Under the pieces are notes generated by a model that searched no databases, was not told where the DNA came from, and saw nothing but the letters and a program-made list of their open reading frames with translations. Positions 3,448 to 33,662 of a stretch of DNA of 34,370 bases are shown one piece after another. Position numbers and translations under genes: made by a program. The DNA comes from Entamoeba histolytica HM-1:IMSS (Eukaryota > Evosea > Mastigamoebida > Endamoebidae): contig NW_001914971.1 in assembly GCF_000208925.1 (NCBI RefSeq), positions 9,910 through 44,279 on the forward strand, in the 5' to 3' direction. Numbering within the stretch: position 1 is the stretch's first letter; each line of letters opens with the position of its first letter.

Positions 3448-6400
3448 TTAAAAGAGTTTTGAATGTTTGAATTGTTCACACTTTAATTGAATTTGAACTG
3501 GAGTCATTTCAAGATTATTTGCTATTTGTAATTGAAGTTTAGGATCCATTTGATTAAAATAATCACATAAATCACCATCAATAACACCAATACCAGGATA
3601 ATTTGTTCCACGATAAGAATCAAACGAATTTGAAAGTAATGGAGAATAATTATTTTTAATTTCCATTTCTAATTTTGAAAAGAATTCTACATCTTCTCTA
3701 AAATTAAATGGTATTAATACACCAATACGTCCCATTAAACATGAATAAATAATTACATTTTTATTTTCTTTTATTTGTTCTTCAAAAGTATATTCATTAG
3801 TATTATCTGTTATTCCTTTCCATATTTCATTAACAGAAACAGAAGTAACAACATCTCCAACATACCACTGAACTATTTCATTTGACAAAGGAATAATATC
3901 AGTTAAATTAAGTTGGTTTGAATTTGTATTAGTTTCTGTAATAAAAACACTTCCAAGTTTATCAAATCCAATAGTAGAAGTTTCATCTAAAATTGTTGAA
4001 GCTGTTAAACTATGCCAAATACGATCTTTTTCAGTAATACTTAAAATATTAGCATCTGAATCATAATTAACATAAATAAATCCTGTAGCAACTGTTCCAA
4101 CAACTATTTTATCTCCAATTACTTCTAATGAATTAATAATTGATGGAAATCCATCTAATTCACATTTTCTTATTAATATTTGTTTTCCTAAATCATATAA
4201 TCTAAGTGTAGTACCAATACCTGCTAATAATCGTTCTCCACAAGACGTCAATGCATGACATATATCTTCTACTGGTGTTTTATGAATTAATTTAAATGTT
4301 TTAAGATTATAAACATTAATCCAACATTCTCCTTTCATTTTCTTATAATGCTTAACTTGTGAAGAAATAAAACATTGTTTCTTTTTAAATGAAACATGTG
4401 CTCCACAAATTATTGCTTCATCAGTTTTAAAATATGATTTAAATAATGAGTTATCAATAATTCCAACTTCACTTGCCCATTTTCCATCTTCTTGTAAGTC
4501 AATACCAATCTTTCTTTCATTAAATTCATTTGTCTCATTATCTATAGTAGGATTATATAAATTACTTTTATTATCACTACATAATACTGTTGTTGGAAAA
4601 TAATTTGATTTAATTACTTTTCTTGGTGTATACAATAATGGTTGTTCATCATATGTAAATCTATCATCTAATGAACCAATTGCTATAACTGTTAATTCAT
4701 CATTTGTAATTCCTGCAATAGACTCTCCAGAAAAATCAGTAATAAATGGTGCTAATGCTTTTAATGGTTGATATGAAATTGGTGTAAATTCAATGCGGGA
4801 AAAATATGAATACATAAAAATCATTGTACTTGATGACATAATAACCCCAATATTTCCACCAAACTCATATTGTCCAAATACAACAGGATCAGTTCCAATT
4901 AATTTACACCACATTAATTCTGAATTTTTTCCAATAACTTTATATCCATAACAACAACCATCCTTCATTCCTATACCAAGGAATAAAAATGGTTCTGATA
5001 TCTCATTAAATTGTGTTAGTATTATTGATTCTGCTTCACCTTCAACAGTAATATTTATTTCAAGAATTTGAAGAAATTTACTTTCTTTTTCTAATGTTAA
5101 AATATTAGCCATTCCATTATCACAAATATATGCAACTTTCTTAGCTTTTCCATTTTCAAAGTCACCTAATGCCATTGCAATAATATTACTTCTTATAATT
5201 CTTCTTTCTACTTCAGCTAATTTCTTTGTTTCAGTATTATATTCAAAATATACAATTTCACATTTAGATTGTGCATTTTTTAATGCAATAACTACTTGAC
5301 ATGAACTTGATGTTCCTACTAAAATCGTTCGTTGTGCTCCTGGGTCTTGTTCTGATAATTTTTCATTTAAAATTGTAATAATTCCATGTGCATGAATTTG
5401 AACTAATGTCCCATCTATGAACATTCCTGCATGTAGTGTTTGTACATTAGGTCGAATACCACATTCAGGACATTGTTTTAATGCATCAGGAAGAGTTTTT
5501 AATACATATGTTTGATTTTCTAATCCAATAACAACATATTGATGAGTTTGTTCATTATATGGTTTTAATGTCCAGATATTTCTTGGATGTTGTAATGATA
5601 ATGACATACATTCATCAGGATTAAGTCCATGAGTTAATATTTTTAATGAACTTCTACTTCCTTTTCCAACAAAAGCCCTTATTTGCAATACTTCATGACT
5701 ATCTACAACATCAATTGATGTTAATGGATGATGTGAAGAAATAGAAGTAGAAATATTAAAATACAATGATTGTGGTTTATAAGTAAATGATGATTGGATT
5801 GGAATTGTGAGTGGTGGTACTTTTAATACAAGATGATTTTGTGACTCAGATGCACTGAAAATAATATCACCATTTATTGACCAACTTACTGAAGGTGGAA
5901 TAGTATCAAAATACTCAATTGTAGATGAATTTGGAAGAATTCTAAAAAGATCACCTAATTCATTTTGAATTAATAATACATTTTGATTATTTAATGGAAC
6001 AAAGAGAACATTAGTGATATGAACAATAATATTTTCATTCATTGTTTCTCTATGAGGTAATAAATAAATAGATGGTGTATAATTATTGTAAATAATAATT
6101 TGATTATTCATAGTTAAAGCAAAAGAATTTGTACTAACTTCTATTTATATAAATACATAATTTATAATTGAATATAAGAACAAACTAAATATTGATTCAG
6201 TTTCATTATTAACTTCTATGTTTTTTATTTCTTGAGGTGAATTATTACAATCAAATACTTTAACATATTTCTTTTTTTCATTCATTAAATAGACTAATGT
6301 TGCATAACAATTATTTCCAATTGATACAATTCCAAAACAAACACAATTATCAATACTCACTTCTTCTTTTAAAAATGTACCATTTTCTTCTTTAAAATAA

Positions 6401-9090: not shown

Positions 9091-10593
9091 TCAATAACTA
9101 ACTTCACCATCAGTTAATTCATCATTTTGACAAGTAAAAAAGTCAAAGAAACTCGATGTTTTTGAGTCTTTACTTCTTCTTCTTAACGGTGCTTTATTTA
9201 TTTCAAAAAAGTCAGGAGAAAGACTTTCAGAACTAGAAGACTTTCTTCGAGAAGCATCAGACAATTGTAAACAGTTCATTGGTAAACCAAAAGAGTGACA
9301 CAAAGGAGAGAAATGTCTATTTGGCGATGTTTTATTAAATGCAAAATAATGAGGGTCTTTAGGAGAAAAAGAATAGTGTTCAGTAGGTATGGTTGGAGAG
9401 TGTATTGTGTTTGGAGAAATACTTCTAGCTCGAGCAGAGTGACTTTCTAAAGGAGAAGAAATAAATGGGGAATTATGTTCATTTGATTTAATTTGACGGA
9501 AGAAGGTATGTTGGATCCAAGGAGATGAAACAAGGTCATTAAAAAAAGGAGGGGTAATAGTACTAACTAATGAGTTATATTTGTTAATCCAACCACCAAC
9601 ACGAATACAACCAAAAGAAGCATGATCTAATTTACCTGCCATACTTTCTGGAAGTTTAGTTTTAGGATGTGTTTTTAGAAATATCCTTGAAGGTTGTGTT
9701 AAATCATAAACATCTTTAAGCACATTTTCTGTAATATCAGAGAATGTAACACTTGATTCAATAAAATTCTTTAATAACTGACATCCTTTTTTCTCAGCAG
9801 AACCAGTAAATAACATTTTTCTGAAATAAGGATTTAAGTTATGATGAATTCCATCAGTCATTACCATTACAATGTCATTTTCTTTTAATTCAATTTTACC
9901 TAAAACACCATCAACTACCCCTGGAATGTAATTTTCAGTACTCCCTAATTTACCCCCACAATTTCTTGTTTCTCCAATTTTTGAAAGTATTTTTCCACAT
10001 AATAAATTTACTTCTTGTGATTCACTATTATAATTATATGCACTACAATCACCTATACTACAATATACTCCATTATAACTTCCTGTTTCTAATGGAACTA
10101 TTGCAATAATTAATAATGTTGTTGTTCCAATATTTAATAAACTTGAGTCAGATCTAAGAATTGCTTCATTAGCCTCTTTTACTGCTTTTAATTCTAATTC
10201 ACCAACATCTCTTATATTTTCACATTTATTTAAACAATTCATTGTACTAAAAACTGTGTCTATTGCTATTTCTGCAGCTTTACATGAAGCAACTCCCCAT
10301 CCACAACCATCAGCTACTACATAAACAGCACTATTTTCAAATAATTTTAAACCAATACGATCACAAATTGGTTCACCTGTTTTTTGACCATTAATTATTG
10401 CATAATAACTAACTGTAGACATACTACAACATTCATCAATTGTACTAATTTTATAAGGAACATTTGTTGATTGTATTATATTTCTCACAATAACCCCAAT
10501 ATTCATAATTTTATTCATTGGTAATGATTTTATCTGTGAATTAAATACTGAATCAAATACTTTTTCACGATGTTCTCTTTCTTTATGACTCAT
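9091..10593 (-). CDS. PP2C-like protein phosphatase with Ser/Pro-rich tail
   Basis: A 500-aa protein. Residues ~60-335 carry the PP2C/PPM metal-dependent Ser/Thr phosphatase fold. Visible motifs are Asp78 (GEPICDRIG), Asp95 in VVADGCGWG (the DGHGG-like motif), the GTTTLLIIAI strand (~156-165), Gly-Asp at 181-182 in SIGDCSAYNY, Asp247 in VMVMTDGIHHNL, and Asp323 in KLDHASFG (the usual DN). The metal-binding aspartates are therefore present, though the classical N-terminal RxxMED motif is replaced by the ICDR version. The last ~160 residues are rich in Ser and Pro, with many SP dipeptides and RRKSSSS/RRRSK stretches, and look like a phosphorylated regulatory tail. The gene has one exon. The substrate is unknown. 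Confidence 0.8.
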   Translation of the reverse strand: MSHKEREHREKVFDSVFNSQIKSLPMNKIMNIGVIVRNIIQSTNVPYKISTIDECCSMSTVSYYAIINGQKTGEPICDRIGLKLFENSAVYVVADGCGWGVASCKAAEIAIDTVFSTMNCLNKCENIRDVGELELKAVKEANEAILRSDSSLLNIGTTTLLIIAIVPLETGSYNGVYCSIGDCSAYNYNSESQEVNLLCGKILSKIGETRNCGGKLGSTENYIPGVVDGVLGKIELKENDIVMVMTDGIHHNLNPYFRKMLFTGSAEKKGCQLLKNFIESSVTFSDITENVLKDVYDLTQPSRIFLKTHPKTKLPESMAGKLDHASFGCIRVGGWINKYNSLVSTITPPFFNDLVSSPWIQHTFFRQIKSNEHNSPFISSPLESHSARARSISPNTIHSPTIPTEHYSFSPKDPHYFAFNKTSPNRHFSPLCHSFGLPMNCLQLSDASRRKSSSSESLSPDFFEINKAPLRRRSKDSKTSSFFDFFTCQNDELTDGEVSY

Positions 10594-12604: not shown

Positions 12605-13390
12605 TCATTCCATTTGTACAACAAGAATTCTTATTAATTTAAACACTTCATTATTTGTATTATTCAAATCATCATTATCAATCCCTTTATATTTATTTGA
12701 TATATTAACACATCCACTTTGTGAAATTGTAGTTTTAGCTACTGAAATAAATCCATCAGGAAAACCTATTTCACATAATCTACCAATTTGATTTGTTTCT
12801 CTATTAAGAAAGAAACAAGTTGAAGGTTTATCATCTCTTCCAAACCAACGAATAGGAGAGTCAATTCTTTCATTAGATTCTAAAGAAAAAATGAAATGAC
12901 TTTTATCTTCCATTCTTTTTCCAGGTCTTGAAATAGACTTTCTATTATATCCTCCAAAAATATTTCCTTTTTCATCAAAAAGAATTATATAAAGTGATGG
13001 TTTATTCATTAATGATCGTTGAAAACATACTACATTTTGATCATCAATATCACTATCAAAAATAATATTCATCTTTATTCTTCCTGTCCATTCTCTCATT
13101 TCATTCATAAGTAATATCATTTTTTTTTCATATAAACTTTTTTCATTTGTTTCTTCTATTTCAACTAATTGTTGTTCTTCTTGGTTTGTTTCTTCAAATT
13201 TTATTGATAATTTTTTTTTTAATTCTTCTACTTCTTTCTTTAAAAGATAATAATCTTTCATTTTTACTTCCATTTGTGTGTATTTCTTTTCAACAAAATC
13301 AAGACGATTTTTACATTGTATTAGTTCATTTTGAGTTTGGATGATAATTTGTTGTAATTCAATGATTTTGTTTAAAAGTTCTTCGTTCAT
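12605..13390 (-). CDS. Coiled-coil / TLDc domain protein
   Basis: A 261-aa protein. Residues ~1-75 form a coiled coil (heptads of Leu/Ile with Glu/Lys). The rest resembles the TLDc domain as found in a large Entamoeba family: YIILFDEKGNIFGGY (~130-145), SHFIFSLES, then CFFLNRE and a final RILVVQ strand. TLDc proteins elsewhere are linked to oxidative-stress resistance and V-ATPase binding. That role is not shown here. There is no signal peptide or membrane segment. The single exon starts at an ATG followed directly by the coiled coil. The SR-protein gene lies 105 bp downstream in the same direction, so they are separate units. Confidence 0.72.
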   Translation of the reverse strand: MNEELLNKIIELQQIIIQTQNELIQCKNRLDFVEKKYTQMEVKMKDYYLLKKEVEELKKKLSIKFEETNQEEQQLVEIEETNEKSLYEKKMILLMNEMREWTGRIKMNIIFDSDIDDQNVVCFQRSLMNKPSLYIILFDEKGNIFGGYNRKSISRPGKRMEDKSHFIFSLESNERIDSPIRWFGRDDKPSTCFFLNRETNQIGRLCEIGFPDGFISVAKTTISQSGCVNISNKYKGIDNDDLNNTNNEVFKLIRILVVQME

Positions 13391-13492: not shown

Positions 13493-15150
13493 ATGAGTAA
13501 GTTTATCAATTTAATTTCCTCTCGTTGTCCTAATACTATTACTAAACCTATTATACAAGAATTTGATTATGTTTACATATCTATATCTATTTATGATGTA
13601 TTTAATATTAATGATATTGAATCCTTTCTCCAAATTTGTATTCCAACAAAAATGTTATGTATTTTTATTGAAGGTATTGTTCCTCTTGCTCTTCTTCGTT
13701 CAAGAAAACATAAAATACACATCCAATTGACTTTGATAATTTAATTAAAAATTTTATTCAAAAACACCCTTCAGTAGAAGTTATTCTTTCTGATAAGTCA
13801 GTTTGTGGTGAGGCAAATCAAAAAAGTCTTGATTTTGTTAGAAAACAATTAGAATGTATGAATTGTCCATTAGATAACACTCATTGTTTTATATCTAATT
13901 CAATGCCTTTCCAATTTCTTTCACTTCATTTATCAAAAAGTGTTATTTACATTCCATCGGTAGGAATAATGTTTGACTTAATCCCAACAGCATTAACATT
14001 ATTAGAAAGTTATAATATTGACTTAATAAATCATAATTTAACTCAATTAGTTGATGATTTAGTTGTATTATCTTTAATAACTGAAAATGATGTGATTCCA
14101 CAAGAAGGAGAGATTTCATTAGATGGGTTATTACGAGAATATCAAAGAGAAATTAAGACACAAGCAATAAGTTCTAATGGAACAATATCAAAACAATTCA
14201 TAGGAAAAATTTTATCAAGTACATTTCAACATCAAATTGAAGAAATAAAAAAGAAAGAAGTAGAAAGAGGTAGAAGATTAATTGGAAATGTAGAATATGA
14301 AATTGATCAACTTAATTATCACAATGATCAAGTAGCAAAAAAATTAAGAAAAGATTTAATTACAATTCGAGGAAGAAGTAAAAATACACATACAACACAA
14401 TACGTTAAATGTTTAAATACTATTGCCTCACAAAAAGATGTTGAATATATTTGTCAAATGTATTGGAAAGGAATAGAGTGGTGTTGTATTTCAACTTTTA
14501 GAGGAATTCCTGATTGGGATTGGTTTTATCAATTTAATGCACCACCAGAAATAACTGATTTAATTCAACATTGCTCGTCTAATTCATTTAGTTTAGGAAG
14601 GCCAATACATCCTTTAATATATCAGATATTAATTAGTTCATGTAAATCAAAACTCCCAAATGGATTAGAGTGGTTAAATACAAGTCAATCAGAATTTTAT
14701 GAATATTTTCGTAATCCACAACAAATGGATATTCTTCAAATCATTAAAATTATTACAGAATCAAAACTTTTTCAAGACTTAAATAGTGTTCATTGGGGAT
14801 GGCATGAGTTATGGTCAACAAAACAATATGTTAAAGGAACTCTTATTCCTAATGAATATGATACTTCACAACCATCTCAAATAGATATCATTACTAAAGG
14901 TTCTTTTCTTTCATATAAAAATAAAAACATTGTAGAAGGAAGTATTATTCAATGTTTTAATAAACAACATCAAGAAGATAAAGAGTTACCTTTTAAATAT
15001 GGATTTATAGAACCTTGGTATTCAAAAAATTTTATTTTTGAAAGTTGTTCTATTGAAGCTCCACAAAGAATATTACAATTTGATTATAATGAACGAAAAA
15101 GAAAACAGGAAGAAATAAAAGAACCTATTATTCCACCATTTACTTATTAA
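13493..15150 (+). pseudogene. XRN-family 5'-3' exoribonuclease-like gene, frameshifted, catalytic residues lost
   Basis: Two overlapping frames together cover an XRN (XRN1/Rat1) protein of ~550 aa. The first (13493-13744) matches the XRN N-terminus (MSKFINLISSRCP, IQEFDYVYI, FIEGIVPLALL against the family's VDGVAPRAK). The frame one base back is open from 13714 and runs to 15150. It continues with VEVILSDKSVCGEANQKSLDF (family: VILSDASVPGEGEHK), NTHCFISNSMPFQFL (family: HCLYGLDADLIML), and later IEWCCISTFRGIPDWDWFY, FSLGRPIHPL and SEFYEYF from the conserved second block. A single-base loss near 13712-13718 would explain the shift. No usable intron is visible, and ~50 residues of the normal core are missing around it. 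The catalytic acidic residues are replaced: Asp of LDMNGI, Asp of VDG (to Glu), one Glu of GEGE and both Asp of LDAD. So it is either a decayed gene or a non-catalytic XRN relative with a sequencing error. Confidence 0.75.
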
Positions 15151-15192
15151 TTCTTTTAATTACTAAAATTTGAAAATAACAAATAATTCAAT

Positions 15193-18100
15193 TTATTTAG
15201 GAGATGAAAATGTAAGATTTAATGAACTTTTAAAGAATGTCTTTTTCTTTGCGTCTTCACTAGACTTTTTTGTTTTTAATAATTTAAATAATCCTAATTC
15301 TCCAGTCATAGATTTTGAAAAATTTTGTGTGTCAACTAATTGTGCTACAACCGTAAAAATATCACTTCGATATTCTTCATGTTCCCAACATGAATGAATA
15401 ATTTTAGACAAAAGAACATCTTTTTGTGGAACTTCAGGCATTGTATATGAAGCAACCATATCCCTAACTACACTAAGGTTTTTAACATCTGGAAATGGAT
15501 GACTCCAACAATACAATTCCCATAAGATCATTCCAAATGAAAAAACATCACTAGCTTCTGTGAAATGATTATTTAAAATAACTTCTGGAGCAAGCCAATA
15601 TGGACATTCAACAACATTACATGGTCCACTTTGGTCTTCTGGAATAGTTTCTCCAAAGTCTGTAAGAGCACATCTTTTTATTTTTTTATTTGAGTCTAAT
15701 TCTACTAATATATTTGGTGTTTTTAAGTCTCTATGAATATGTTTTATAAGATGAAGTTGTTTAATTCCATTTGCAATTTGAAGACCAACACTTCTAACTT
15801 CTTCATAACTCAGAGATGGATAATGTTCTATATATTCGAATAAATTACCATCTTCAAAATATTCCATAATAATCATCATTGGACATTCAACATAGTTATA
15901 AACTCTAGCAAGGTTTTCATTTGGTTGGAATTGAATTGAATAAACTTCATGAATAAACTCTCCAACTCGTAACAAATATTCTTCAACAGATGATTTAATT
16001 CCTTCCATATGACACATACTAATATCTACATTTATTTCTTTTATTACTACCTTCTTTTTTGTATCATTTCCAATATGTCCAACTGATATAATTGATGAAC
16101 TTCCTCGTGTTAATACCTTTTCTTGGTGAACATCTTTTACAGAAAGACAATAACCAACAACTTCTTTTAAACATATAAATAAAAGGTCTAATGCAAATAA
16201 TGGTAAAACAACATAATGTTCTTTATTGTCACTTTCAATTTTCTCAAATACTTTATTTTTAATTGAATTTTTAATTTGTTCTTTGTTGAATAAGAATGGT
16301 TTGTCTTTTGTAACACAACAACTACACATAATATGAATATCATATTGTATATCAAACCTATTTGATAAAGTACTTAATAAATGTTCTATTTCTCTAAATA
16401 ATTTCATTGACTCTAATGTCATATCATCTCCCATGAGATATCTTAATCTTAATGATAATTTTTGACGGGATTGAGAAAATACAAAATACATAAATATATC
16501 TCCAGAATCTACTCGTTCAGAACATATAATTCCTCTTTTCCAAACAACAATCATTTTGTAATAAATAGAGACATAAGCCAATAACTTTACATACATCTCT
16601 CTTGGCATTAATGAAAATTCATAAACTCGACCAATTTCTAATTCCATTTTATGATATTTAGATGGCCAGAAATTTTCTATTGTAAACCCAGCTGTTAGTG
16701 AACTAGTATTAAATATTAAGTAATTTGGTTGTTGTTGTTGATTTTCCGTAGCTGTATCTGAACGAGGTGAATTTAAAACATTATCTTTATGTGGAGAAGA
16801 TATAGAAGATTCAGTTTGGAGTGGGAGTGTTCTAAGTGACATTCTTTTTGATCCAATAGAAAAAGAAGCTCTTGGTTTCCTTGTTGGTCCAATAGAATGG
16901 GTTTGATGTATTAAACTAGAGTTTAATTTTTCAGAGCTTTCTTTTTCTAAAGAGGATAAATTAAGTCCTGGACTAGTTATTGGAGATTGGTCTGATGAAA
17001 GAGAGTTAGGACATCCATTTGATAACACATGGTCTGAATAATATTTCAAATATGACATTGGAATATTCATTTTTTTAAAGAATTCATCATCAACTAACAA
17101 TATAACATGAAGAGAATGCATTAAATGTAAAACAAAATGAAGGGAATAGGAAGAAACAGACAATGATTGTTGTAACGTCATAACAGAAACAATTCCATTT
17201 TTTGTTTTAACAGTTGCCAAGATACTTCTGATTTTATCCATTATAGAGTAATCAACTAAACAATATCTATAACCATCTAAAGTAAATATACCTTTTCTTT
17301 TTAAAGAATTAATCATTTTAGAGTCATTTTCTTTTGGTATTTCAAAATATCTGAAAATATTACATAATTCTGATATTCTAAGAATTCCATTTTTATATTC
17401 AAATGATTTAATTTCATGAAGTAAATGATCTACAATAGTTTCTTTACGTTTATTTTTTATAACTTGTTCTATTACTTCTTCAACATTTAAATTTATCTCT
17501 TCTATTTCTCCATTTGACTTCTTCTTTTGGATTAAATCAATTACTTTTTGGTCAGTATTTGATTGTTCAATTATTTTTTTAATACGTTTACCTGTTTCTT
17601 GTTCTCCACAAATAAAAATCATTCCAAGATAACAATATTTATATGATTGTTCTTCAAATATATCTGGAGCTACAGAAATAAAATCTACATCAAAAGAAGA
17701 TCCATTATAAGTTAATAACATATGCTCTAAATTACCTGAAGAATAATTTGTACCATTTAATATTGCAATAGAAGACATTATATCTTTTCTAATTGTGTCA
17801 CTACCAGTAATAACAACATTAATATGTTCAATAATATTTTTATTCTTTTCTAATTGTTGAATTGAAACATCACAACATGATTCTAATGAACGAGGATAAA
17901 ATATCAATGGATTTCCTATTAAAGATAATACCTTGAGATTTTTTAAAGAAGTCATTTGTCTTGGAAAATGTGTTATTTTATTATTTTTTAAATTTAATGA
18001 TGTTAAGTTTGTTAGTCCTTGAAATCCATAAGGAAGTCGTTCTATTCCACAGTCTGTAATACTTAAATCTTCAAGTGTGACTAGTGATGTAATATTAAAT

Positions 18101-21100
18101 GGTAATGATTCTTGTTTAGTGATAGAATTAATAGATAAGAATTTAATCATTGGTAATGTCTTAATAATGAAGTTTAAAAAAGAACTTGAACAATCATGAG
18201 CAATAATTCTTTGTACTGAAGGAATTGTTATTGGAAAGATTGAAGAAAATCCTGAAATAACAAAAGTTTGGAGTGATGGAGCATGAAGCCGTACTAATGG
18301 ATTATATGAAATATTAAGAGAGTCAAGTGACAAATATTGTAACATTGGAAGATGACAAATATCGTTATTAGCCAAATTAAGATTTTTTAAATTAGTAATT
18401 GAGGTAATTGATTCATCTATAACAGTAAGATGATTATTTTGAAGATTAAGACTAATTAATCCAGTAAGAACAGTAATTTCTTGTGGAAATGAAGTTAAAT
18501 GATTATTAGATAAGTTTAATGATGTTAATGATGTATAATTATTTAACATTCCATCATATAATGGGAAATATACTAAATTATGATGAAATTCAAGAGAATA
18601 TTTTGATTGTAGTGATTGTAAAGTAAAGAAATTATAAGTATAAGGATTAATTATAGTTGAAAAGAGATTATTTAAATGTAATTTTGTACATGGAATTTCA
18701 ATTTGTCTTTCTAAATAATTAGTATTAATAAATTCATTCTTATGAATTTGAAGATAAGAATAAACACTAGCTAATCCATAAACTTGAAATGGAAGAAATT
18801 CAATAAATCGTTTAGAATAACAATGGTAATAGAAGAATTTGATTAAATGATTATTAAATTCAAATTGATTTGGGTTTGTTTGTATTAACATAAGAACACA
18901 TGCTAAATACAATATAAAATATTTATTAAAATCTCGTTCTGGTGTTTCAAGAAAAGGAAATTTATTCCATACAAAGTTTTTTAAGAAAAGATGAACAAAT
19001 CCATCAAATGTCCTATAATGAGAGTCTGTCATTAGTTCAATTAATGAACAAACAATATTAACTGAACAATCAAAACTTTTATTTGGTAAAAGAACACATA
19101 ATGTTTCTGGTGTTTGAATTAATAATAATATTTTATGTATCATTTGAAAAACTGTATCTATTTGATTAGAGTAACATTCCATTGTAGAATCGAAGAGTTG
19201 AATACATTCATTTGCATTAGATGTATATGAATCAAAGAGTCTCATTTCTAAATCTTTCATTGTTTTATACGTTTCATTATCTTTAAGAGCAATATCAGGA
19301 AATGTTATAAGATATTTTACAACATTAGAAATACTAGAATTAAAAATAATTGGAGTTGGTGAATTTAGAGAGATACTTGAAGATAAAGAGAATTGAATAA
19401 TTTTAGATTTATTTTTTGTTTGGAAAGCAACATAAGGAACTCTACTTGTATCTGAACATTCAATACCTTCAACAATAGGTGCATTAATTTTATATTGTTT
19501 AGATGGTGAGTTTGATTCTGTTCCATCAAAAGAATAACCAATTCGTTTATATTCAAATTGAACTATATCATTCAATGTATTTTCATCAAAAATTTTTGAT
19601 TGATATTCATTGAATGGTTGATACTGATATTGAATATGAACAAATTCTTTATCAATAGAATCAAATGGTTGTTTTGACCCAAAAAATAAATGAGTAAAAT
19701 TTCTACAAAACACTACCAATCCGTATAATTGATTTCTTTCTTCAATTCTAAAACTTGCAATATAATTAATTGGTATTTGACCAATTGTTGAAATTATTTG
19801 TATTTTACTTGAGTCATCACAATTATCAGGAACAAATTTTATTCTATAATTCGTTAAAAAGAGTTTACCATGTTCCCATGAATCAAAATTAAAAGAATCA
19901 TCTTTCATTTCATGTGTTGTAATATATTTAAATGGACAATAAACATCATTATAACAATATTCAATAAATTCTCCTTCATATTGCCATGTACTTTCAAATT
20001 GTATTATTTGTTCATTATTAGATGGTGATGATAATAATGAAATAAGAGATATAACACTCTTTCTATTAATCATCCCTTGACATAAACAATTTAGAAAATA
20101 ATTTGCACATTCTTGTTGCATTTCTTTATTCATTTTACATTGATCAATTAATTCATTAATAAAACTAATTGTATAATCAAAAACTTCCCTTTTTATTTCT
20201 CCTTTTTTACCTAGTGCATTCTCTTCCATTTGGATTAATTCTTCTTTTTTAAAATTTTCTTGTTCAAGATATATTAACATTTCATTATAAACATCTTCTT
20301 CAATAACTGGATTGGGTAATGATAGGAAAAAATGTTTCCATAATAATAATGCAACTCTAATAGATCCAATTTCATAGAGATTTGGATAATTCCCTTTATT
20401 TAACTCATTAAGAATCATCAAAACAATATGTAACTCTTTATAACTCTCTTCATTTATTTTTTCTAATTATAAATATCATTGATATTTAAAAATAAAAGAA
20501 AAACACATTAACAAACTAAATAATTGACTGCCAATGTCTTGAGTATTTATAAGTTCCATAATAAAAGGAATATCTTTCTCTTTAATACCTCTAAATTTCC
20601 ATTCCATTTTACTAACATTAAATTTAGTTGTTTTATTTTCACTAATTGAAGTAATAATTGAAGAATATTGAGATAAACCATTATCTTCAAGTAATTCAAG
20701 TTTTTCTTTAAGTGTTAATTTATCGAATGGAATAGTAGTTTGATATTTTAAACTAACTAAAATATATTTTTGGATATATGACTGAATTAAAGGGATGTTT
20801 TGAAAGGTTCGATCTCCTAATTTAATTTTAGTAATTTCTTCACCAACAATAATATATTTTTCATTCTCACTATTTGTTATTTCTAATTCTTCATTTTTAT
20901 GTTCTTCTTTAACACTATCAACTTCTTTAATTTCATTTTCACCATCATTATTTTCATTTTTAGGAGGGATGTATGGTGTAATCATTCCCATAAAACCAAT
21001 TCGTGGTGTTTTAAACATTTGATTCAAATTAGTACCAAATTTTTTAATTAAATTTCCTTTTTTTTCTGAGTGTGATGACTGTGCAGTAGGTGTTGGTAAT

Positions 21101-21268
21101 TCATTACTCTCTTCTAATGAAATTTTTCTTTGTTTATCACTACGACTTAATGATGGAAGTTTTGACTATTTAAATAATTAATAAATTAAATAATACTTAA
21201 AAGAATAAAGAACAAACGAATTGTATTGAAGTCATTCGACCAATATGACCTCCCTTGCTATTTTTCAT
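15193..21268 (-). CDS. ROCO-type protein: RhoGAP, GRAM-myotubularin, LRR, Roc-COR, kinase; three exons
   Basis: Exons 21268-21218, 21165-20517 and 20462-15193 encode 1,989 aa. The introns, 52 nt (21217-21166) and 54 nt (20516-20463), both run GTTTGT...TAG. Domains by residue: RhoGAP-like ~135-310 (Arg209 in WKFRG at the arginine-finger position; LSLPNPVI matches LPEPL); PH-GRAM ~388-500 (GKLFLTNYRIKF); myotubularin-like ~500-800, whose CX5R active site is replaced by LLPNKSFDCS, although SHYRTFDGF and FEFNNHLI still match; ~8 leucine-rich repeats ~877-1092; a Roc-like segment from ~1113 whose P-loop (GSDTIRKD) lacks GK[S/T]; COR ~1230-1640 with a Ser-rich insert at ~1380-1480; TKL kinase ~1677-1942. 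The kinase looks active: Lys1708, HRD Asp1812, DFG Asp1835, APE from 1858. Dictyostelium and LRRK2 ROCO proteins act in cytoskeletal and GTPase signalling. Its stop is 42 bp from that of the XRN-like gene. Confidence 0.85.
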
Positions 21269-22710: not shown

Positions 22711-22734
22711 AATTTTATATAAATAATTAATAAA
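22711..22734 (+). repeat. Left target-site duplication of the SINE
   Basis: This 24-bp AT-rich sequence (beginning AATTTTATATAAATAA) is repeated without a mismatch at 23281-23304, directly after the element. The flanking bases differ, so the duplication is exactly 24 bp. Long perfect duplications of this kind are made by target-primed reverse transcription. Confidence 0.88.
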
Positions 22735-23280
22735 AATTAGTTAATTAAGTATTAATAGAATTTTCATCTATTCTTCCTAGCTCAGGGGAGACTAATCCCA
22801 TCCCTGAGCTTATTAAAAAAGAGTAATCTCTTTGTTGAACCTATCATTTAGGTTTGTATTGGAAATTGAGGAAAGCACTTCTTTCCTTTATTTCTTCCTA
22901 TTAAGGTTTTTCAAACTTCTTCTGCTTAATTCTTCTTTTTAAGCCTTTGTTTGTTTTCTGCCTTAATTTTAAGGAATTTCATTTTTCTTATTTTATGAAT
23001 GGGAGAAGGAATCATTTTATTACTACTGTATTACTTTGACTAATCTTCTTTTTAGTCTTACTTTGACTAATCTTCTCTTAGTCATACCCACACTTCAGTA
23101 GATTCTTATATTACATCCACGTAATATTCTACTGTATTCTCTTGCTGCACCCTTTGCAGCATTCCCTAATACATTCCTAATTCAAAGGCACCGTCATAAC
23201 CAGATAATAACTGGGAGAGTCGAAGAATGAATTTGTACTAGGGTTTATGTGTGGTGTTTCAGACGTGCCACCTTCGATCT
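22735..23280 (+). mobile_element. Non-LTR SINE, EhSINE1-like, 546 bp
   Basis: A 546-bp non-coding insert with much higher GC than its surroundings, bounded by perfect 24-bp direct repeats. It starts AT-rich, then has a stem-loop (CTCAGGGGAG paired with CCCTGAG, ~22780-22810), pyrimidine-rich DNA, two tandem 26-27-bp repeats (23031-23083) and a structured 3' end (GTGTGGTG...GTGCCACC, preceded by GAGTCGAAG and followed by CTTCGA). No poly(A) tail is present. Size, internal ~26-bp repeats, lack of a tail and variable-length target duplications are those known for EhSINE1, which is mobilised by the EhLINE1 reverse transcriptase and endonuclease. Orientation is taken from the 3' structure and is less sure than the identity. 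The perfect duplication implies a recent insertion. Confidence 0.82.
23031..23083 (+). repeat. Two tandem 26-27-bp repeats inside the SINE
   Basis: Copy 1 (23031-23057, 27 bp) and copy 2 (23058-23083, 26 bp) share TTACTTTGACTAATCTTCT and end in TTAGTC. They differ only in a short T/C run. EhSINE1 copies are known to vary in the number of such units, so the count can serve as a copy-specific marker. Confidence 0.85.
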
Positions 23281-23304
23281 AATTTTATATAAATAATTAA
23301 TAAA
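23281..23304 (+). repeat. Right target-site duplication of the SINE
   Basis: Exact 24-bp copy of 22711-22734, immediately after the CTTCGATCT end of the element. It fixes the right boundary of the insertion. Confidence 0.88.
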
Positions 23305-24129
23305 TATAAATTCCTTTCTTAGAAAGACTTACCAAATTCTTTGTTTTGATGTATTATTCTTATCAAGACATTTTAATAGTCTAGTGCTAAAGAATATCTT
23401 TATTTAGTTTGGCATTGAATCAAACAAAATGTATTTCTGTCCAAATAAAGATAGTAATATTCTCATTCTAATTCTCTTAAGTCTAAAACTATTTTATTTA
23501 TCTTTCCATTCAACTAGTTGTTATAAATACAATCTTATGTATAACCAATCATATAATAAGCAATTTTTATCAAAGAACTCAATGAGTATTTATTTCTTTA
23601 ATCATTTAGTTAGTTTTCCATATCTCATCTGAATGTTTTCTTTATGAAATACAAAATAATGAAATAAACTTTGACTAAAATTAAATATAATGAATTTTTT
23701 ATATTTAAACAAAAAAAAAACATCCACCTATTAAAGAAATAATTTAAGTTCAAACAAATAATAATATATAAGTTTCCTTTTTAATATTATTTTAAAGAGA
23801 TTTAATAATTGGATTTATATTGATGTTGTTTAGTCTTCTTTATTAACTTTGATGAAAGAATAAATTCATTAACTCATTGTAGGTAATAGTTAGGAATAAC
23901 CTTGAAACAATAGATAAAGAAAAGAAATAAAGGAAGATTCTTCATAGACTCAACTTAAAATATAAACAATGTTTTTATATTTTCATAGAACTTAAAAAAA
24001 ATTATAAAAATCATAAAAATGTAATTAAAAAAAACAACTACTAAAAAACTATATTTTAATAAGAAGAAAAAAGAAAACAAAAATAACTAAAAAAGAAAGA
24101 AAGAACTTAAAAATCATCATATTATTGTT
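23305..24129. other. AT-rich intergenic region
   Basis: About 825 bp between the SINE and the next gene, with no convincing coding frame. The 67-codon frame at 23429-23632 is low-complexity and has no motif. The last 70 bp are purine-rich (AAAAAGAAAGAAAG) and carry the promoter motifs of the next gene. Confidence 0.45.
24101..24116 (+). promoter_or_regulatory. GAAC-like and initiator-like motifs of the 24130 gene
   Basis: AAGAACTT (24101-24108) is followed at once by AAAAATCA (24109-24116), which ends 13 nt before the ATG. The pair and its spacing fit the Entamoeba core promoter (GAAC element next to the initiator). By motif only. Confidence 0.5.
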
Positions 24130-24769: not shown

Positions 24770-25489
24770 TTATTCATTGCACAATTCAAGTAATTTCTCT
24801 GAAATAATATCAAATATTTGATTAATATTATTCCCTGTTTTTGCACTACATTCTAAATTACCAATAATATTTGAGTTAGAACTGTTAATAAAATCATTCA
24901 CAGAATTTTGATTAACTTCACGTTCTTCTTGTAAGTCATCTTTATTCCCAACAATTAAAATCATTATGTCATTGGTCGTATTAGACTTTAATTCAGCAAC
25001 CCAATCAGTTACAGCATTAAATGTTTCCTAATTCAATAAGTCTTATTATTTTCTTTTTTTTTTCTTGTTAACTAATATTGAACTTAAACAAACCCGTTTT
25101 GTAATGTCATATACTAATAATGCAACTGTTGCATTTCTATAATAAATTGAAGATAATGATCGATATCTCTCTTGTCCAGCTGCATCCCATAATTCATATT
25201 TAATAATTCTTTTATTATAGGTTACTGTTTTTGAACTAAATGCACACCCAACAGTAGCTGTTTGTCTAACAAATTCATTACTAATCCATCTGTGTAAAAT
25301 ACAAGTCTTTCCAGTTCCCATCTCTCCTAAAACAACCACTTTTATTCCTTTAGAAAGTTGTTCACTCAAAGGTAATGGTGTTGGAGGTTCATCATTTGTG
25401 ACTATTAACTGAGTATAAATTCTCTTATTTGTTTAAATGAAAAGCAAACTATCAATAATACTTTCGTTTTTTCCTGAACAACAAGACAT
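24770..25489 (-). CDS. Rab-family small GTPase without C-terminal cysteines, three exons
   Basis: Exons 25489-25450, 25401-25094 and 25027-24770 encode 201 aa. The introns are 25449-25402 (48 nt, donor GTTTGC) and 25093-25028 (66 nt, GTTTGT), both ending TAG. The second junction restores YDITKRETFNAVTDW, typical of Rabs. All nucleotide-binding motifs are there: P-loop GEMGTGKT (39-46), switch I Thr63 in TATVGCAF (close to the Rab5/21/22 STIGAAF), WDAAGQERYRSL (85-96), GNKDD (143-147) and CSAK (176-179). YYRNATVALLVYDIT is the Rab-specific region. Rabs direct vesicle tethering and fusion. Unusually the protein ends LLELCNE, with no CC, CXC or CAAX prenylation signal. The N-terminal exon instead begins MSCCSG. 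The first exon is the least certain part, as it rests on splice motifs and phase. Confidence 0.85.
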
Positions 25490-27646: not shown

Positions 27647-30600
27647 ATGGGAGATAAATATTCTATTCAAATGTCTCTCGCTGTTATCCAATCATGTATT
27701 GACCGTAAACAAAAACAAACTATGGAAACTTACCAACAATATGAAAATAAATTTATTCAAGGAAATAATCTTTGTGATACTAATCAAAGTTCATTACTTG
27801 GATGTATGAAAATTGGACTAACAATTTATTATTCTATTAAACAAACAGATAAATTGGCATCATCATTATTAGCATTAATTCAACCTGAAATATTAACTGT
27901 AAATACTGTTCAACAAATATTAGAATTATCAATATCTTATTTAACAGCTCAAAATATTAAATCAAATAAAAAAATACTTCAATTTACATTTGGACTAATA
28001 GAAAATACTATTCCATTCAAAATAGAAAAAAAATTTGTTCTTGAAAATTTTAAATTACTTAATGATATGTTTTGTGTTGTTTCTCCAAATGATGTTTGTT
28101 TTAGTATATCATTTTAAAGATATATAAGTGGTATTCATTTAATTAGTCAAATGCCCGTGCAATTAAAAAGATTCAGGAAAAATATATTCGTTCATTATTT
28201 ATTATGTATGGAGGAGTAACTAGTTTTGATGAAGACATTGAACAGCCTTCTCCATCATTATCTTCACATTTACAATTTTTTAGTTCAAATGGTTTAAGAA
28301 GAGAACGTGATAGAGCAATGTCACTTTCAGTAACTAGAGGAATTAAATTGAGTTCCTCAGACAAACTAAGGTTTACTCCTTGTAATGATGATATTTTTGT
28401 GAATCCTCAAAATAATTTCCATGGAAATACTCCTATATCAGTTTTAAGTAAACCAACAAAGAAAGAAGATAAAGAAGTCATTGAAATAAAAAATAATTCA
28501 AATGATAGTATTAATTCTCATGAAAATACAAGTTATCATTCAAATGAACCTCACGAAACATTCCTTGGAGAATTTGCTTCTGATGATGAAGAAATATCGT
28601 CATCAGAAGACAGTTCTGTTGATAAAGAAATTAAATCTCCCAAAACACCAAAAGAAGGAGAAAGCACAGAAGAATATATTGGACAAACGAGTGAAGAAAA
28701 GTCTACATTAACTAAAGGTGGAAGTACACAAGAACTTCAAGTTCAAAAAGAATTAGCTCAAATGAAACGAAGAACAGCAAGACAAGATAGTGCACTTGAA
28801 AAAGAAAAGTTACTTGAAGAAGATTTACCAATTCATTTAGCAGTACTAAGTTTATTAATAAAAAACAGTTCATTTGATCATATAAAATCTCCATTTTTAT
28901 CAGAACAAATTAAGAAATCCCCATGGAAAGAATTAAGAGGAAAACGACCAATGGTTCTTAGAATGGAAAAACATATTCTTGAATTAACACGTTATTGGTT
29001 AGATAAATGTCCTGAAACATGTAATCCTACAGTAATCAATAAATGGAATATTGATTTTGTTGGTTGTTTAAGTTATAACGTATTTTCTGATGATAAAACA
29101 TTATTTATTACATCATTACAAATACTCATTATTTGTATACTCAAATTTAGAACAAATTTAAAAACTGAAATTGCATTATTATTAAATTCAATAGTTTTCT
29201 TCTATATTTTATCACCCTTACCATTATATTCATATAAACAAATAGTTATATCTGAATTAGTAAAGTTATGTCAAGACTCTCAATTTTTAAATGATATATT
29301 CTTAAATTATGATTGTGATAAGTTTGGACAAAATATCTTTGAAGAGTTATTAAATACTATTTGTTTTATTCTTACACCTGAATTTAAAAATGCTTCTATA
29401 GAAGAAATTCCTATTAAAATTCTTGCAGATATGAGAAAAGAATGTTTATCATTAGTTCATATTATCATAGACTCAATTAAAAAATTAATGATTCAGGTAA
29501 ATGGATTAGAAAGTATTGGAATGGTTGAATTAGATAATGGAATTCCTGTTAAAACAAACTCAACATTAGTTTTAAAATGTTTAATTGATAGAAAAATTAA
29601 AGTTGATATTGTAAAAGCTAAACAATTATTCAAAGAAAAACCAAATGATGGAGTTTCATATATGATTAAATCAAATTTATGTTATAATGACCCAATGTCT
29701 GTTGCTCAATTTCTTAAAAACTTAGAAGGCATTGATAAAATTGCATTAGGTAAATATCTTACTTCTAATAAAGACTTTAATAAAGAGGTCTTTAAAGAAT
29801 ACATGAAATTAATTGATTTTAATGGACTAAGTGTTGATGAAGCATTAAGATTAATGTTTAATTTATTTGTTATGCCAGGAGAAGGTCAAGTAGTTGATCG
29901 TGTAATGGAAATGTTTGCTCATAGATATGCTGAGTGTTGGAGTGATAAAATGAAAGAGATGAATATTACATCAAATCAAATATATTTCTTAGCTACAACA
30001 ATTATTTTCTTATCAACAGAAACACATAATTCAAATGTCAAAACAAAAACAATGGATAGTTATGAGAAATTTAAACAAATGGTTGAACAATTTAATTTTA
30101 CATTACCTGATAGTTATCTTCAACCTTTATACCAAAGTGTTACTCAAAATGCATTTTTGATTCCAGAACAAAAAGAAAAAGTTGAAGATGATAATAAATA
30201 TATAATTACTATTAAAAATAATCCTCATCAAAGACCTCAAATTTTATTGTTAAAAAGTCAAATTACTGAAGCTAAAATTGATGAAGATACTGTTGAATCA
30301 TTATCCATTTCTAATAAAGATATTCTTCATGCACTTATAGAAACTATGGTTCCAATAGAATTAAAAAGTTTAAAAATTGCGTTTGATATATATAATGATA
30401 TTACAGATACTTTAACTTATTTAAAAGAAATGCTTGACATTTGTATTGTAATGGATTGTAGAGAAATGACTGAACTTATCATTAAAACTATGTGTGAGTG
30501 GTGTGTGTATTATGATTTTAATAGTTGTAAATCATGTAATATTCAGGTTACTAAAATGATAATAGATATTAGTAATTCATTACAAAATAAATTACATGGA

Positions 30601-32772
30601 GGATGGAAGTATTTGTTTATTGTTCTTTCAAGATTTGAACAAATGAACTTAATTGAACATCCAACTATTTCAACATTAAAAAGTATTCCAAAAAACACTA
30701 GAAAATTATTTTTTATGGAAGTTCAACATCAATTATATCAACCAAAAGATATTAAAATACCAACAAATATTTCAAATGATATACTTAATTTAAAGAAAGA
30801 ATTAAAAATTGAAATTGAAACAATACCATTAATATTTGATTCATTAAAATTATTAAATGAAGACAGATTTTGTGAAATTATCAAATGTCTAAGTAGCAGT
30901 GCCTTAAATGAATTAAATTGTATCACTCCACCAATGTTATTATTAAATCAATTTAAATTAATTGTTGAAGGATTTATTGAAAAGAATAAAGAAATAAATA
31001 ATAAAGAAACAATTGAAATTATAAGAAATTTCTTATTACAATGTATGCTTCATCCACATGAAACTATTTCAATGAAAGCTATAGAAATATTTTTTAGATT
31101 TTGTGAATTGGATTTATTTAAAGAATCAAAAGAAATATTAAAACCAGTTGTTATTGCAATGGGAGACTCTCCCTTAGAGAAATGTCGTTCTAATATTCTT
31201 GAAGTATTAAATAAAGAATTAAAAAAGAAAGATAATTATATAACACAATCTTGGAAAGAAGTATTTGAAATATTGTTCATTTCTACTATGGATGAATCTT
31301 TAAGTATTATGAAAGAAGGATATGAAACATTAAGCACAATAATAGAATTAAAATATGAATTTGATGAAAAATATTATTCATATTTCTTTAAAACACTTAT
31401 AAAATTTTCTCTTACTAATGAAAAAGCAGTTGTTCAAGATAAACAAAGTGATCCAATTATTATTGTTGGATTAAATAGAATTATTGATAAATATCCAATT
31501 GATACTATTGACTTAAGTTTAGACTCTCATTTCTTTGATATCTTCTTTGATTTCTTATTTACTCATATGAATATTACAAAAAGTCAACATATTATTATTT
31601 CTTCTTTGGCATTACAATCTTTAACTCATTACATTGAAATTTATTCTCCAAAACTTTCATATAATGATTGGTATTTTGTGTTTTATAAAATATTCTTTAG
31701 AGTTTTAGAACCAATTGGATATTATCATTTAAAATCTGAAAATATATTTAATTCTCGTGGAGATGAATGGTGGTCATCTGTATGTTTAAGTATGTTAACA
31801 AGAGCTTGTGATTTCATTTCTAAAAATCCAGGATTATTACAACCATTTATGGCTGACATTATTCATATTGTAATTACTTTTATTATTAGAGGTATTTCTC
31901 AATCTTCATCTGTAGCTGTATTAACAATTAAATTAATATTTTCTTATTTTATAGATAATCCAAATTATATTCCAATGTATAAACTTATGATAGAAGATAT
32001 TATTAATTACATGTATGACTCAATGAAATATTTTGTTGAATTACCTTCAATACCTTTAACAAATGAAAGTAAAATAAACCATCAAGAAATAACCTCTAAT
32101 GAAGAAGAACAACTCAAATGTAGTTTTTGTAATAAAGAATTATATGAATTTAATAAATTAAGATGTCCATTGTGTGATACATTTTATTGTTCTGTTGAAT
32201 GTAAAGAAAAAGATAAACAAAAGCATCATCATTCACCTGAAATAAAATCAACGTTCAAAGACCAATTTATTCCTCATTTATTTATACCATCATCATTTGA
32301 TTTCCCATCAACTACATCTGCTTTTGATACATTTTTAAATGCAATATCTTCATTTTCTCAACAAATTACATTAATATCTAAAGAAGAAGACCAAGATATA
32401 TTAATCTGTTTATTAAATAATATAAAACGATTTATTGATGTACTTAAAGAACTTAAACAAACAAATCCAAATTATCAAAATGTTTTATCAATCAAAAATG
32501 CAATAGAATATCATCTCACTTTATTTGCACATGAAGTATGTAAGACATATCCAATTGTTATTGTCAATTTGATGAATGAATTTTTAAGTATTAGCTCAGA
32601 TACTATTCTTCTTCTTGCATTTGAATTAATTGAAAAATGTGATAATGAGTTACTTAGACTTGTTCATCAACAATCATTCTCAAACCTTCTTTCATTAATT
32701 CCTCATGAAAATATTGAAATAAGACAACACCTAAGCTCTGCTTTATTAAAAATATATAATGCCATCAAATAA
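27647..32772 (+). CDS. Sec7-domain ARF guanine-nucleotide exchange factor (BIG-like) with MYND-like zinc finger, two exons
   Basis: Exons 27647-28093 and 28147-32772 encode 1,690 aa. The 53-nt phase-0 intron (28094-28146) is GTTTGT...TAG. The protein activates ARF GTPases at Golgi or endosomal membranes. Residues 1-150 are helical (DCB-like). Next comes a Ser/Glu-rich linker (~175-365), then the HUS domain with its hallmark LNYDCDKFGQNIFEEL (~535-550). The Sec7 domain is at ~623-818, with the catalytic Glu728 in MPGEGQVVDR, then HRYAEC and the THNSNVK loop, so exchange activity should be intact. Helical HDS-like repeats follow. At ~1474-1511 lies a zinc-finger pattern C-x2-C-x11-C-x2-C-x4-C-x3-C-x7-H, like MYND but without the final Cys. 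This is not a usual part of BIG/GBF proteins. An exact GAAC element supports the start. The frame is open upstream, but only from a TTG. Confidence 0.88.
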
Positions 32773-32825: not shown

Positions 32826-33662
32826 TTATTCACTCTCATAACTTTCATCATTTGAACTTTCACTATCTTCATTTAATAATGAAGAAAATTCACTTGAAAA
32901 ATCATCTTCATCATCATCAGAGTAAGGTTCCATTTGATTTTTAAAATAATATAAACTATTAAGAATAATATCATTAGAAAAACATATTGTATCATCTAAT
33001 TGTTCATCTAATTTATCTTCAATTTCTTCTTCTTCCTCTTCATTACTATATTCTTCTTTTTGGTTTATTGGTTCAAAGAAATCAAAAAATGAATGTTGAC
33101 TTGAATCAATCATTTTAGGGTTTTTTCCATCATAAAAAGTAACACCTGAATTTGAAATTTTAGGATAATAAATTGGTTCATTAAATATATATGACACTGT
33201 TTTACTTAGTTCTGTTTCTTCAAACCATTCATTTTTTTCAAACTCAAATACAAGCTTAAATCCAATCCTTAATCTTTTTCTATCAGCTATTACTGGTCCA
33301 ACTGTACTAACTACTGTAAATGATGTAAGATAAATATCTTTTAAATGTTCTAAGATTTCAATGTCTGTATTTGTTGATTGTATTTTCTTTAATATTCCAG
33401 AGTTTTGAAGAACATAACTCCAATAGTGGGGAATTTTTTCACGTGAAGGTTTAAATGCTTGAAATCGTTGATGAGATTCTCGAAATTCATTTATCATTAC
33501 CATTTCATTTTGTATTGTTAAATTATTAAGTTCTATTTGTTGTTGTTCTAATTCAGATATTGCTTCAATGGTTTCTTTACCAAACTTAGCAATCATTTCA
33601 CTATATTTATTATCTTGTTCTTGGTCTAAATGTTCAACCATTTCTGCAATAATTAAGTTCAT
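32826..33662 (-). CDS. NAP/SET family histone chaperone
   Basis: A 278-aa protein of the nucleosome assembly protein family, which binds histones H2A-H2B (or H3-H4) and carries them between cytoplasm and chromatin. A long N-terminal dimerisation helix (~18-65) is followed by the NAP core: IPHYWSYVLQNSG (~77-89, family IPxFW), HLKDIYL, the FKLVFEFEKNEWFEETELSKT stretch split over ~135-155, and SFFDFFEP (~191-198). The C-terminal ~75 residues are very acidic (Glu/Asp runs near 206-222 and 247-278), as expected. The closest type is hard to fix between NAP1 and SET; the short length favours SET. It ends 53 bp from the stop of the Sec7 gene, convergently. A start at Met8 is also possible. Confidence 0.87.
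   Translation of the reverse strand: MNLIIAEMVEHLDQEQDNKYSEMIAKFGKETIEAISELEQQQIELNNLTIQNEMVMINEFRESHQRFQAFKPSREKIPHYWSYVLQNSGILKKIQSTNTDIEILEHLKDIYLTSFTVVSTVGPVIADRKRLRIGFKLVFEFEKNEWFEETELSKTVSYIFNEPIYYPKISNSGVTFYDGKNPKMIDSSQHSFFDFFEPINQKEEYSNEEEEEEIEDKLDEQLDDTICFSNDIILNSLYYFKNQMEPYSDDDEDDFSSEFSSLLNEDSESSNDESYESE

What the first reader, a model, noticed from the sequence alone, without database searches (positions are those of the whole stretch)
15193..21268. Giant ROCO protein with a dead myotubularin module and a degenerate Roc GTPase but an intact kinase
Seen: a continuous 1,989-aa frame after two introns, with RhoGAP-like, PH-GRAM, myotubularin-like, LRR, Roc-like, COR and TKL kinase regions. 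The myotubularin CX5R loop is replaced by a stretch without the arginine, and the Roc P-loop lacks GK[S/T]. The kinase keeps Lys, HRD and DFG. Known: Roc normally gates the kinase in ROCO proteins, and some Dictyostelium ROCO proteins carry phosphatase-like or RhoGAP regions. Inference: here the kinase may be controlled by something other than nucleotide binding, with the lipid-phosphatase fold kept as a phosphoinositide or docking module.
Basis: partly seen in the sequence, partly recalled or inferred. Interest (0 to 1): 0.75.

Follow-up and report, generated by a model that had tools for sequence, protein, structure and literature searches.

The report
Known amoeba kinase with dead modules
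This is one of nine giant kinases of the dysentery amoeba that carry disabled enzyme domains, a family described in 2010; what is added here is that a further domain, the RhoGAP, also seems disabled and that the GTPase part may have decayed more than once while the kinase was kept.

Summary
Minus strand 21268-15193, with two short GTTTGT...TAG introns removed, encodes 1,989 aa: RhoGAP-like, PH-GRAM, myotubularin (CX5R loop lost), LRR, Roc-like (no GK[S/T]), COR and TKL kinase (Lys, Glu, HRD, DFG present). The E. histolytica HM-3 protein is identical apart from its N-terminal gene model. It is one of nine such paralogues in its genome. Kerk and Moorhead (2010) described nine as IMLRK proteins and drew the same inference (live kinase, dead Roc, altered control), so the finding as written is already known.

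Added here: (1) Predicted folds match myotubularin and Roc-COR structures; COR is well supported, Roc weakly. (2) No copy has the CX5R loop or the P-loop (0 of 9 each), so this is not local decay. (3) The RhoGAP finger arginine is missing in 8 of 8 aligned copies (the ninth left out); 18 of 18 sampled RhoGAPs of the genome keep it. A conserved insert, perhaps SAM-like, lies beside it. (4) Three relatives from outside the genome share the dead myotubularin loop; one has an intact Roc, two a partly decayed one. The phosphatase may have died first, with Roc decaying repeatedly.

The parts
15193..21268 (-). IMLRK-type ROCO kinase gene, 1,989 aa, three exons
   Evidence: deposited match P0001
21218..21268 (-). 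exon 1 (17 codons)
21166..21217 (-). intron 1, GTTTGT...TAG, 52 nt
20517..21165 (-). exon 2: N-terminal linker, RhoGAP helix-A-like segment, SAM-like insert
20463..20516 (-). intron 2, GTTTGT...TAG, 54 nt; splits the codon at the RhoGAP finger site. Pattern-predicted GTTTGT...TAG introns adjoin the same site in C332, C392, C288, C376 and C266 (some with a second possible acceptor)
15193..20462 (-). exon 3, with stop
20758..20796 (-). segment resembling RhoGAP helix A (IPLIQSYIQKYI, from residue 141); a similar segment is seen in all nine paralogues
   Evidence: resemblance by eye, not a scored match
20530..20733 (-). conserved insert, possibly SAM-like (residues 162-229; borders chosen by me)
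   Evidence: SAM_2 E 0.0016 in paralogue C380 (under cut-off), 0.063 in C392; no Pfam match in this copy
20122..20415 (-). RhoGAP-like core, residues 250-347; the arginine-finger position just upstream is K234, whose codon is split by intron 2
19606..20001 (-). PH-GRAM-like domain (about residues 388-519)
18673..19578 (-). inactive myotubularin phosphatase domain (about residues 529-830)
19057..19098 (-). replaced catalytic loop (CVLLPNKSFDCSVN, from residue 689) in place of HC[ST]DGWDR
17845..18597 (-). leucine-rich repeats (about residues 856-1106)
17443..17826 (-). Roc-like pseudo-GTPase region (about residues 1113-1240)
   Evidence: low model confidence
17782..17817 (-). degenerate P-loop VVITGSDTIRKD (from residue 1116)
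16153..17436 (-). COR domain (about residues 1243-1670), with a low-confidence linker at about 1354-1493
16315..16326 (-). CxxC in the C-terminal part of COR (C1613, C1616), invariant in the nine paralogues
15328..16113 (-). TKL-type kinase domain (about residues 1684-1945)

Best explanation
This gene encodes one of nine Entamoeba histolytica IMLRK proteins, most likely the one catalogued as EHI_048230 (inferred, not shown). It probably works as a membrane-anchored scaffold kinase. The dead myotubularin with its PH-GRAM, and the finger-less RhoGAP, bind phosphoinositide or active myotubularins and a Rho/Rac-type GTPase in trans. The Roc-like domain is a structural remnant that holds COR. COR and the LRR bring two copies together, and the kinase is switched by recruitment and dimerisation rather than by GTP in its own Roc. 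Shown: domain order, loss of catalytic motifs in the paralogues, predicted folds, retained kinase residues. Inferred: every binding and switching step.
Against: No functional data at all. The Roc half is modelled with low confidence (block pLDDT 41-66 over residues 1113-1184, lower after that) and had no sequence or profile match to Roc. The kinase glycine loop is degenerate, so kinase activity is not assured. PMC2927912 held that EHI_048230 alone keeps a Roc residue set that might allow activity and that its RhoGAP is probably active; if this copy is that gene, my motif reading disagrees with both statements. Stray DxxG or [NT]KxD strings occur in the Roc regions of some paralogues, though not in this one.
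Confidence: 0.5

Rival explanations
1. The Roc still binds nucleotide by an unconventional site, so the kinase is gated as in other ROCO proteins.
For: PMC2927912 singled out EHI_048230 as having a Roc residue set that might confer activity; a Lys survives in TGSDTIRKD and falls on the P-loop Lys if aligned without a gap (sequence).
Against: No GK[ST], DxxG or [NT]KxD in the Roc region of this copy; two of three outside relatives show partial loss of the same motifs.
Confidence: 0.15
2. Local decay: the gene is degrading and its motif losses have no functional meaning.
For: Three enzymatic motifs are lost in one protein.
Against: The frame is open over 1,989 codons; the losses are shared by the paralogues (0 of 9 CX5R loop, 0 of 9 P-loop); the deposited strain copy is identical where the gene models agree.
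Confidence: 0.05
3. The RhoGAP is active and uses another arginine, such as R209 in the insert (WKFRG), as its finger.
For: RhoGAP passes the Pfam cut-off when spliced (25.6 against 24.5 bits) and its core matches RhoGAP by profile and fold; PMC2927912 called the EHI_048230 RhoGAP probably active.
Against: R209 is not conserved among the paralogues, and the finger position aligned after it is Lys.
Confidence: 0.15
4. The kinase is also a pseudokinase, and the protein is a pure scaffold.
For: Glycine loop LTRGSSSIISVG keeps one of three glycines; paralogue C334 has HRN and no catalytic Asn.
Against: K1708, E1739, HRD, N1817, DFG and APE are present in this copy.
Confidence: 0.15

Closest known systems
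[quoted passage not shown]
   Same: Same species, same architecture, nine copies, dead myotubularin, degenerate Roc, probably active kinase, RhoGAP in five; the present gene is in all likelihood one of them.
   Different: Here the RhoGAP finger is found missing, a conserved insert is noted beside it, and this copy is read as lacking all Roc nucleotide motifs.
Dictyostelium Roco9 (DDB0191512) and Pats1 (DDB0191503)
   Same: Inactive myotubularin-LRR-ROCO-kinase order; Roco9 also has an N-terminal RhoGAP (both per PMC2927912).
   Different: Their sequences were not obtained here; state of their Roc and RhoGAP residues not tested.
LRRK2/LRRK1 and Chlorobium Roco (3dpu, 6hlu)
   Same: Predicted COR fold matches.
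   Different: They have a GTP-binding Roc and no myotubularin or RhoGAP (recalled).
p190RhoGAP pseudoGTPases (PMC5593906, abstract) and the OCRL1 RhoGAP-like domain (PMC4278560, passages)
   Same: Precedents for GTPase folds that lost nucleotide binding and for a catalytically inactive RhoGAP-like domain that binds Rac1 and Cdc42.
   Different: Different proteins; analogy only.

Membership tests
IMLRK | PH-GRAM plus myotubularin domain without CX5R | tested here: met
IMLRK | LRR followed by Roc-COR followed by kinase | tested here: met
   LRR and kinase; COR; Roc half only weakly supported
IMLRK | found in Amoebozoa | tested here: met
   100% match to an E. histolytica HM-3:IMSS protein
ROCO GTPase, catalytically competent | P-loop GxxxxGK[ST], DxxG, [NT]KxD | tested here: not met
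   none present in the Roc region of this copy
ROCO (by fold) | Roc-COR tandem | tested here: inconclusive
   COR met; Roc region low confidence, though Foldseek aligns 635 columns with 3dpu_A
Active myotubularin phosphatase | HCX5R loop | tested here: not met
Active RhoGAP | arginine finger in the G[IL]FR loop | tested here: not met
   Lys at the aligned position; use of another arginine such as R209 is not excluded experimentally
SAM domain | SAM profile in the RhoGAP insert | tested here: inconclusive
   SAM_2 E 0.0016 in C380 (19.0 bits, cut-off 20.5) and 0.063 in C392, 8 of 9 copies scanned; PDB profile search gave 16 hits, of which three (2d8c, 3tad, 4rqm) are SAM-bearing by recall, at E 0.30-0.37, with five other hits ranked above
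TKL kinase | Lys, Glu, HRD, DFG | tested here: met

The most novel reading that the evidence does not exclude
IMLRK proteins are kinases built round three dead enzymes. The RhoGAP finger loop was lost, beside a small inserted domain, turning a GAP into a Rho-binding sensor. The myotubularin died before the family spread to other lineages. The Roc GTPase then decayed at least twice (in Entamoeba and in the lineage of P0004/P0005, while P0002 stays intact), each time with the kinase kept. This would mean that a ROCO kinase can repeatedly be rewired from internal GTP gating to gating by a GTPase bound in trans.
Probability: 0.35. Interest if true: 0.6.

Novelty: already known. Interest (0 to 1): 0.3.

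Why it matters
The architecture and the idea of a ROCO kinase freed from its GTPase have been in print since 2010; the searches made here showed no experiment on the Entamoeba proteins, within an open-licence library. If the added points hold, these proteins are natural tests of how much of LRRK2-type control depends on GTP at Roc and how much on COR-mediated dimerisation and recruitment. P0002, P0004 and P0005 would give a graded series from intact to decayed Roc.

Tried and rejected
Pfam COR-A over the whole genome: no match; COR in this copy was recovered only by profile comparison and fold. PDB sequence profile of the Roc-COR alignment: two irrelevant weak hits. SAM_1 over the genome: nothing there or in the controls, so uninformative; SAM_2: two places, not in the IMLRK frames. 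The SAM label stays tentative. Pfam Roc over the genome gives 156 matches; none of the listed rows lies in the nine IMLRK frames, but the list was cut and only 150 of 209 candidates were scored. The third protein search (E cut-off 1e-30, only the 7,988 candidates sharing most words scored) listed no further myotubularin-ROCO kinase among 31 hits, but it also missed P0004 and P0005, so it shows no absence. VIA lists for both models are dominated by one domain, so absence of a fold there means nothing. C-x5-R strings occur outside the loop in 6 of 9 paralogues and in P0005; I did not count them as the motif. In one search my script could use only 3 of 8 high-scoring myotubularin loci for the alignment because it read one strand; one search then found the active motif in 8 of 8. 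The kinase tree groups the nine, C160 and P0002/P0004/P0005 with support 98/94, but its outgroups hold no known ROCO kinase lacking a myotubularin apart from C160, so it does not show that the architecture arose once; 4 of 25 chosen outgroups dropped out for length or lack of match. The identity with EHI_048230 was inferred from score ranks only. The RhoGAP control used 18 of the best 22 rows, of 72 matches in all. C334 was left out of the finger alignment beforehand because I could not place its site.
Full report
Gene and identity. The minus-strand frame is real. Two classical short introns (GTTTGT...TAG, 52 and 54 nt) join three exons into 1,989 codons ending at 15193. The window lies in a 16.95-Mb genome. 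A protein from E. histolytica HM-3:IMSS is 100% identical over the part searched and equals ours at residues 76-144 and 241-1989. Its model starts at M76 and has one His in place of our residues 145-240, so it lacks the RhoGAP finger site. The model used here has typical introns and adds protein with counterparts in the paralogues, but no RNA evidence was available.

A family of nine. Genome searches with the protein and with the myotubularin profile find eight more long frames with the same order: C332, C392, C288, C350, C380, C376, C266 and C334. Identity to this copy is 19-26%. A shorter relative, C160 (884 aa), has no myotubularin or LRR match. Nine is the number of IMLRK proteins that Kerk and Moorhead reported from E. 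histolytica (PMC2927912; passages, part 1 of 2 of section 6, and the Discussion). C334 shows HRN and loss of the catalytic Asn, and C332 has FT where this copy and most others have LH upstream of HRD. These fit what the paper says of EHI_135010 and EHI_107230. By rank of RhoGAP and kinase scores, this copy fits EHI_048230; that is inference.

What was already in print. The 2010 paper gives the architecture, the dead phosphatase, the RhoGAP in five copies, the loss of Roc residues, the intact kinase residues in seven of nine, and the conclusion that control of the kinase must differ from the usual Roc gating. PMC6563779 (passages) and PMC4104024 (passages) report the family after it. A search for 'IMLRK' finds these three papers only. 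'EHI_048230' is found in one.

Dead motifs. At the CX5R loop none of nine has the motif, while 8 of 8 high-scoring myotubularin loci of the same genome have HC[ST]DGWDR (three of them aligned). GK[ST] is missing from the Roc region in 9 of 9. This copy also has no DxxG and no [NT]KxD there; stray DxxG strings occur in C332, C288, C376 and C266 and stray [NT]KxD in C288 and C334. DFG is present in 9 of 9 and the HRD Asp in 8 of 9. In this copy the kinase has K1708, E1739, HRD from 1810, N1817, DFG from 1835 and APE from 1858, but its glycine loop (LTRGSSSIISVG) keeps one glycine of three.

RhoGAP. The Pfam match begins after the finger (profile position 34). Aligned with 18 RhoGAPs from the same genome (18 of the best 22 rows, of 72), all 18 show G[IL]FR, while this copy has QLFK with K234 at the finger. 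Upstream exons were predicted by intron pattern for six paralogues. Five of these, with the unbroken frames of C350 and C380 and this copy, give no Arg at that position in 8 of 8 (Lys in C281, C332, C392 and C266). C334 was left out beforehand because I could not place its site. Between a segment like RhoGAP helix A and the finger site, all nine carry an insert of 59-68 residues by my borders. Its best-supported match is SAM, below accepted thresholds. In six copies, this one included, a GTTTGT...TAG intron adjoins the finger site. This goes against the paper's view that the EHI_048230 RhoGAP is probably active, if the identification is right.

Relatives outside the genome. A profile search (85 hits) found three proteins with myotubularin, LRR, COR, ankyrin repeats and kinase from unnamed or transcriptome sources (P0002, P0004, P0005). 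All three lack CX5R at the loop. P0002 has GEENVGKT, DFAG and THLD; P0004 keeps GGPQSGKS but not DxAG; P0005 has GHDKAGKK and no G3 motif (the DKAG that one search reports for P0005 lies inside that P-loop). In a kinase tree of 34 rows, P0004 and P0005 pair (99/95), P0002 joins them (93/86), and all thirteen group (98/94); the nine Entamoeba copies form one side with 87/79. The simplest reading is that the myotubularin was dead before these lineages split, and that Roc decayed separately in Entamoeba and in the P0004/P0005 line. It rests on three sequences of unknown species and a tree without proper ROCO outgroups.

Mechanism. The best guess is a recruited, dimerising scaffold kinase whose GTPase input comes in trans through the finger-less RhoGAP and whose membrane input comes through PH-GRAM and the dead phosphatase. 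OCRL1's inactive RhoGAP-like domain binds Rac1 and Cdc42 (PMC4278560, passages), and p190RhoGAP carries pseudoGTPases (PMC5593906, abstract). COR's role in dimerisation is described in PMC6337361 (passages). None of this has been tested for this protein as far as these searches show.

Verdict. The finger loss and the Roc series are modest additions that deserve a check.

Noticed in passing
window 22718-23310: A dispersed repeat of about 550-590 bp, with 39 other near-complete copies listed at 93-98% identity in the same genome (only 40 of 432 candidates were scored); SINE-like by size and spread.
   Followed up: no
window 24935-25342 (-): The Pfam Roc profile scores 89 bits here with three stops inside, probably an intron-split Ras/Rab-type GTPase gene.
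   Followed up: no
window 2340-33662: Neighbours by Pfam: CAF1 ribonuclease (2340-3272), CPSF_A/DDB1-like (3451-6111), PP2C (9094-10593), TLDc (12608-13390), Xrn helical domain (13858-15147), Sec7 with a weak MYND match (28204-32769), NAP (32829-33662).
   Followed up: no
window 13858-15193: The Xrn-like gene converges on the kinase gene; their ends lie 42 bp apart.
   Followed up: no
L032:5031-7682 (+): C160, an 884-aa relative with a kinase but no myotubularin or LRR match, in a locus with a stretch that reads N; it groups beside the nine IMLRK kinases.
   Followed up: partly
P0001 against window 20400-20840: The deposited HM-3 gene model starts late and leaves out the RhoGAP finger region, which may mislead domain annotation of this protein.
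   Followed up: partly
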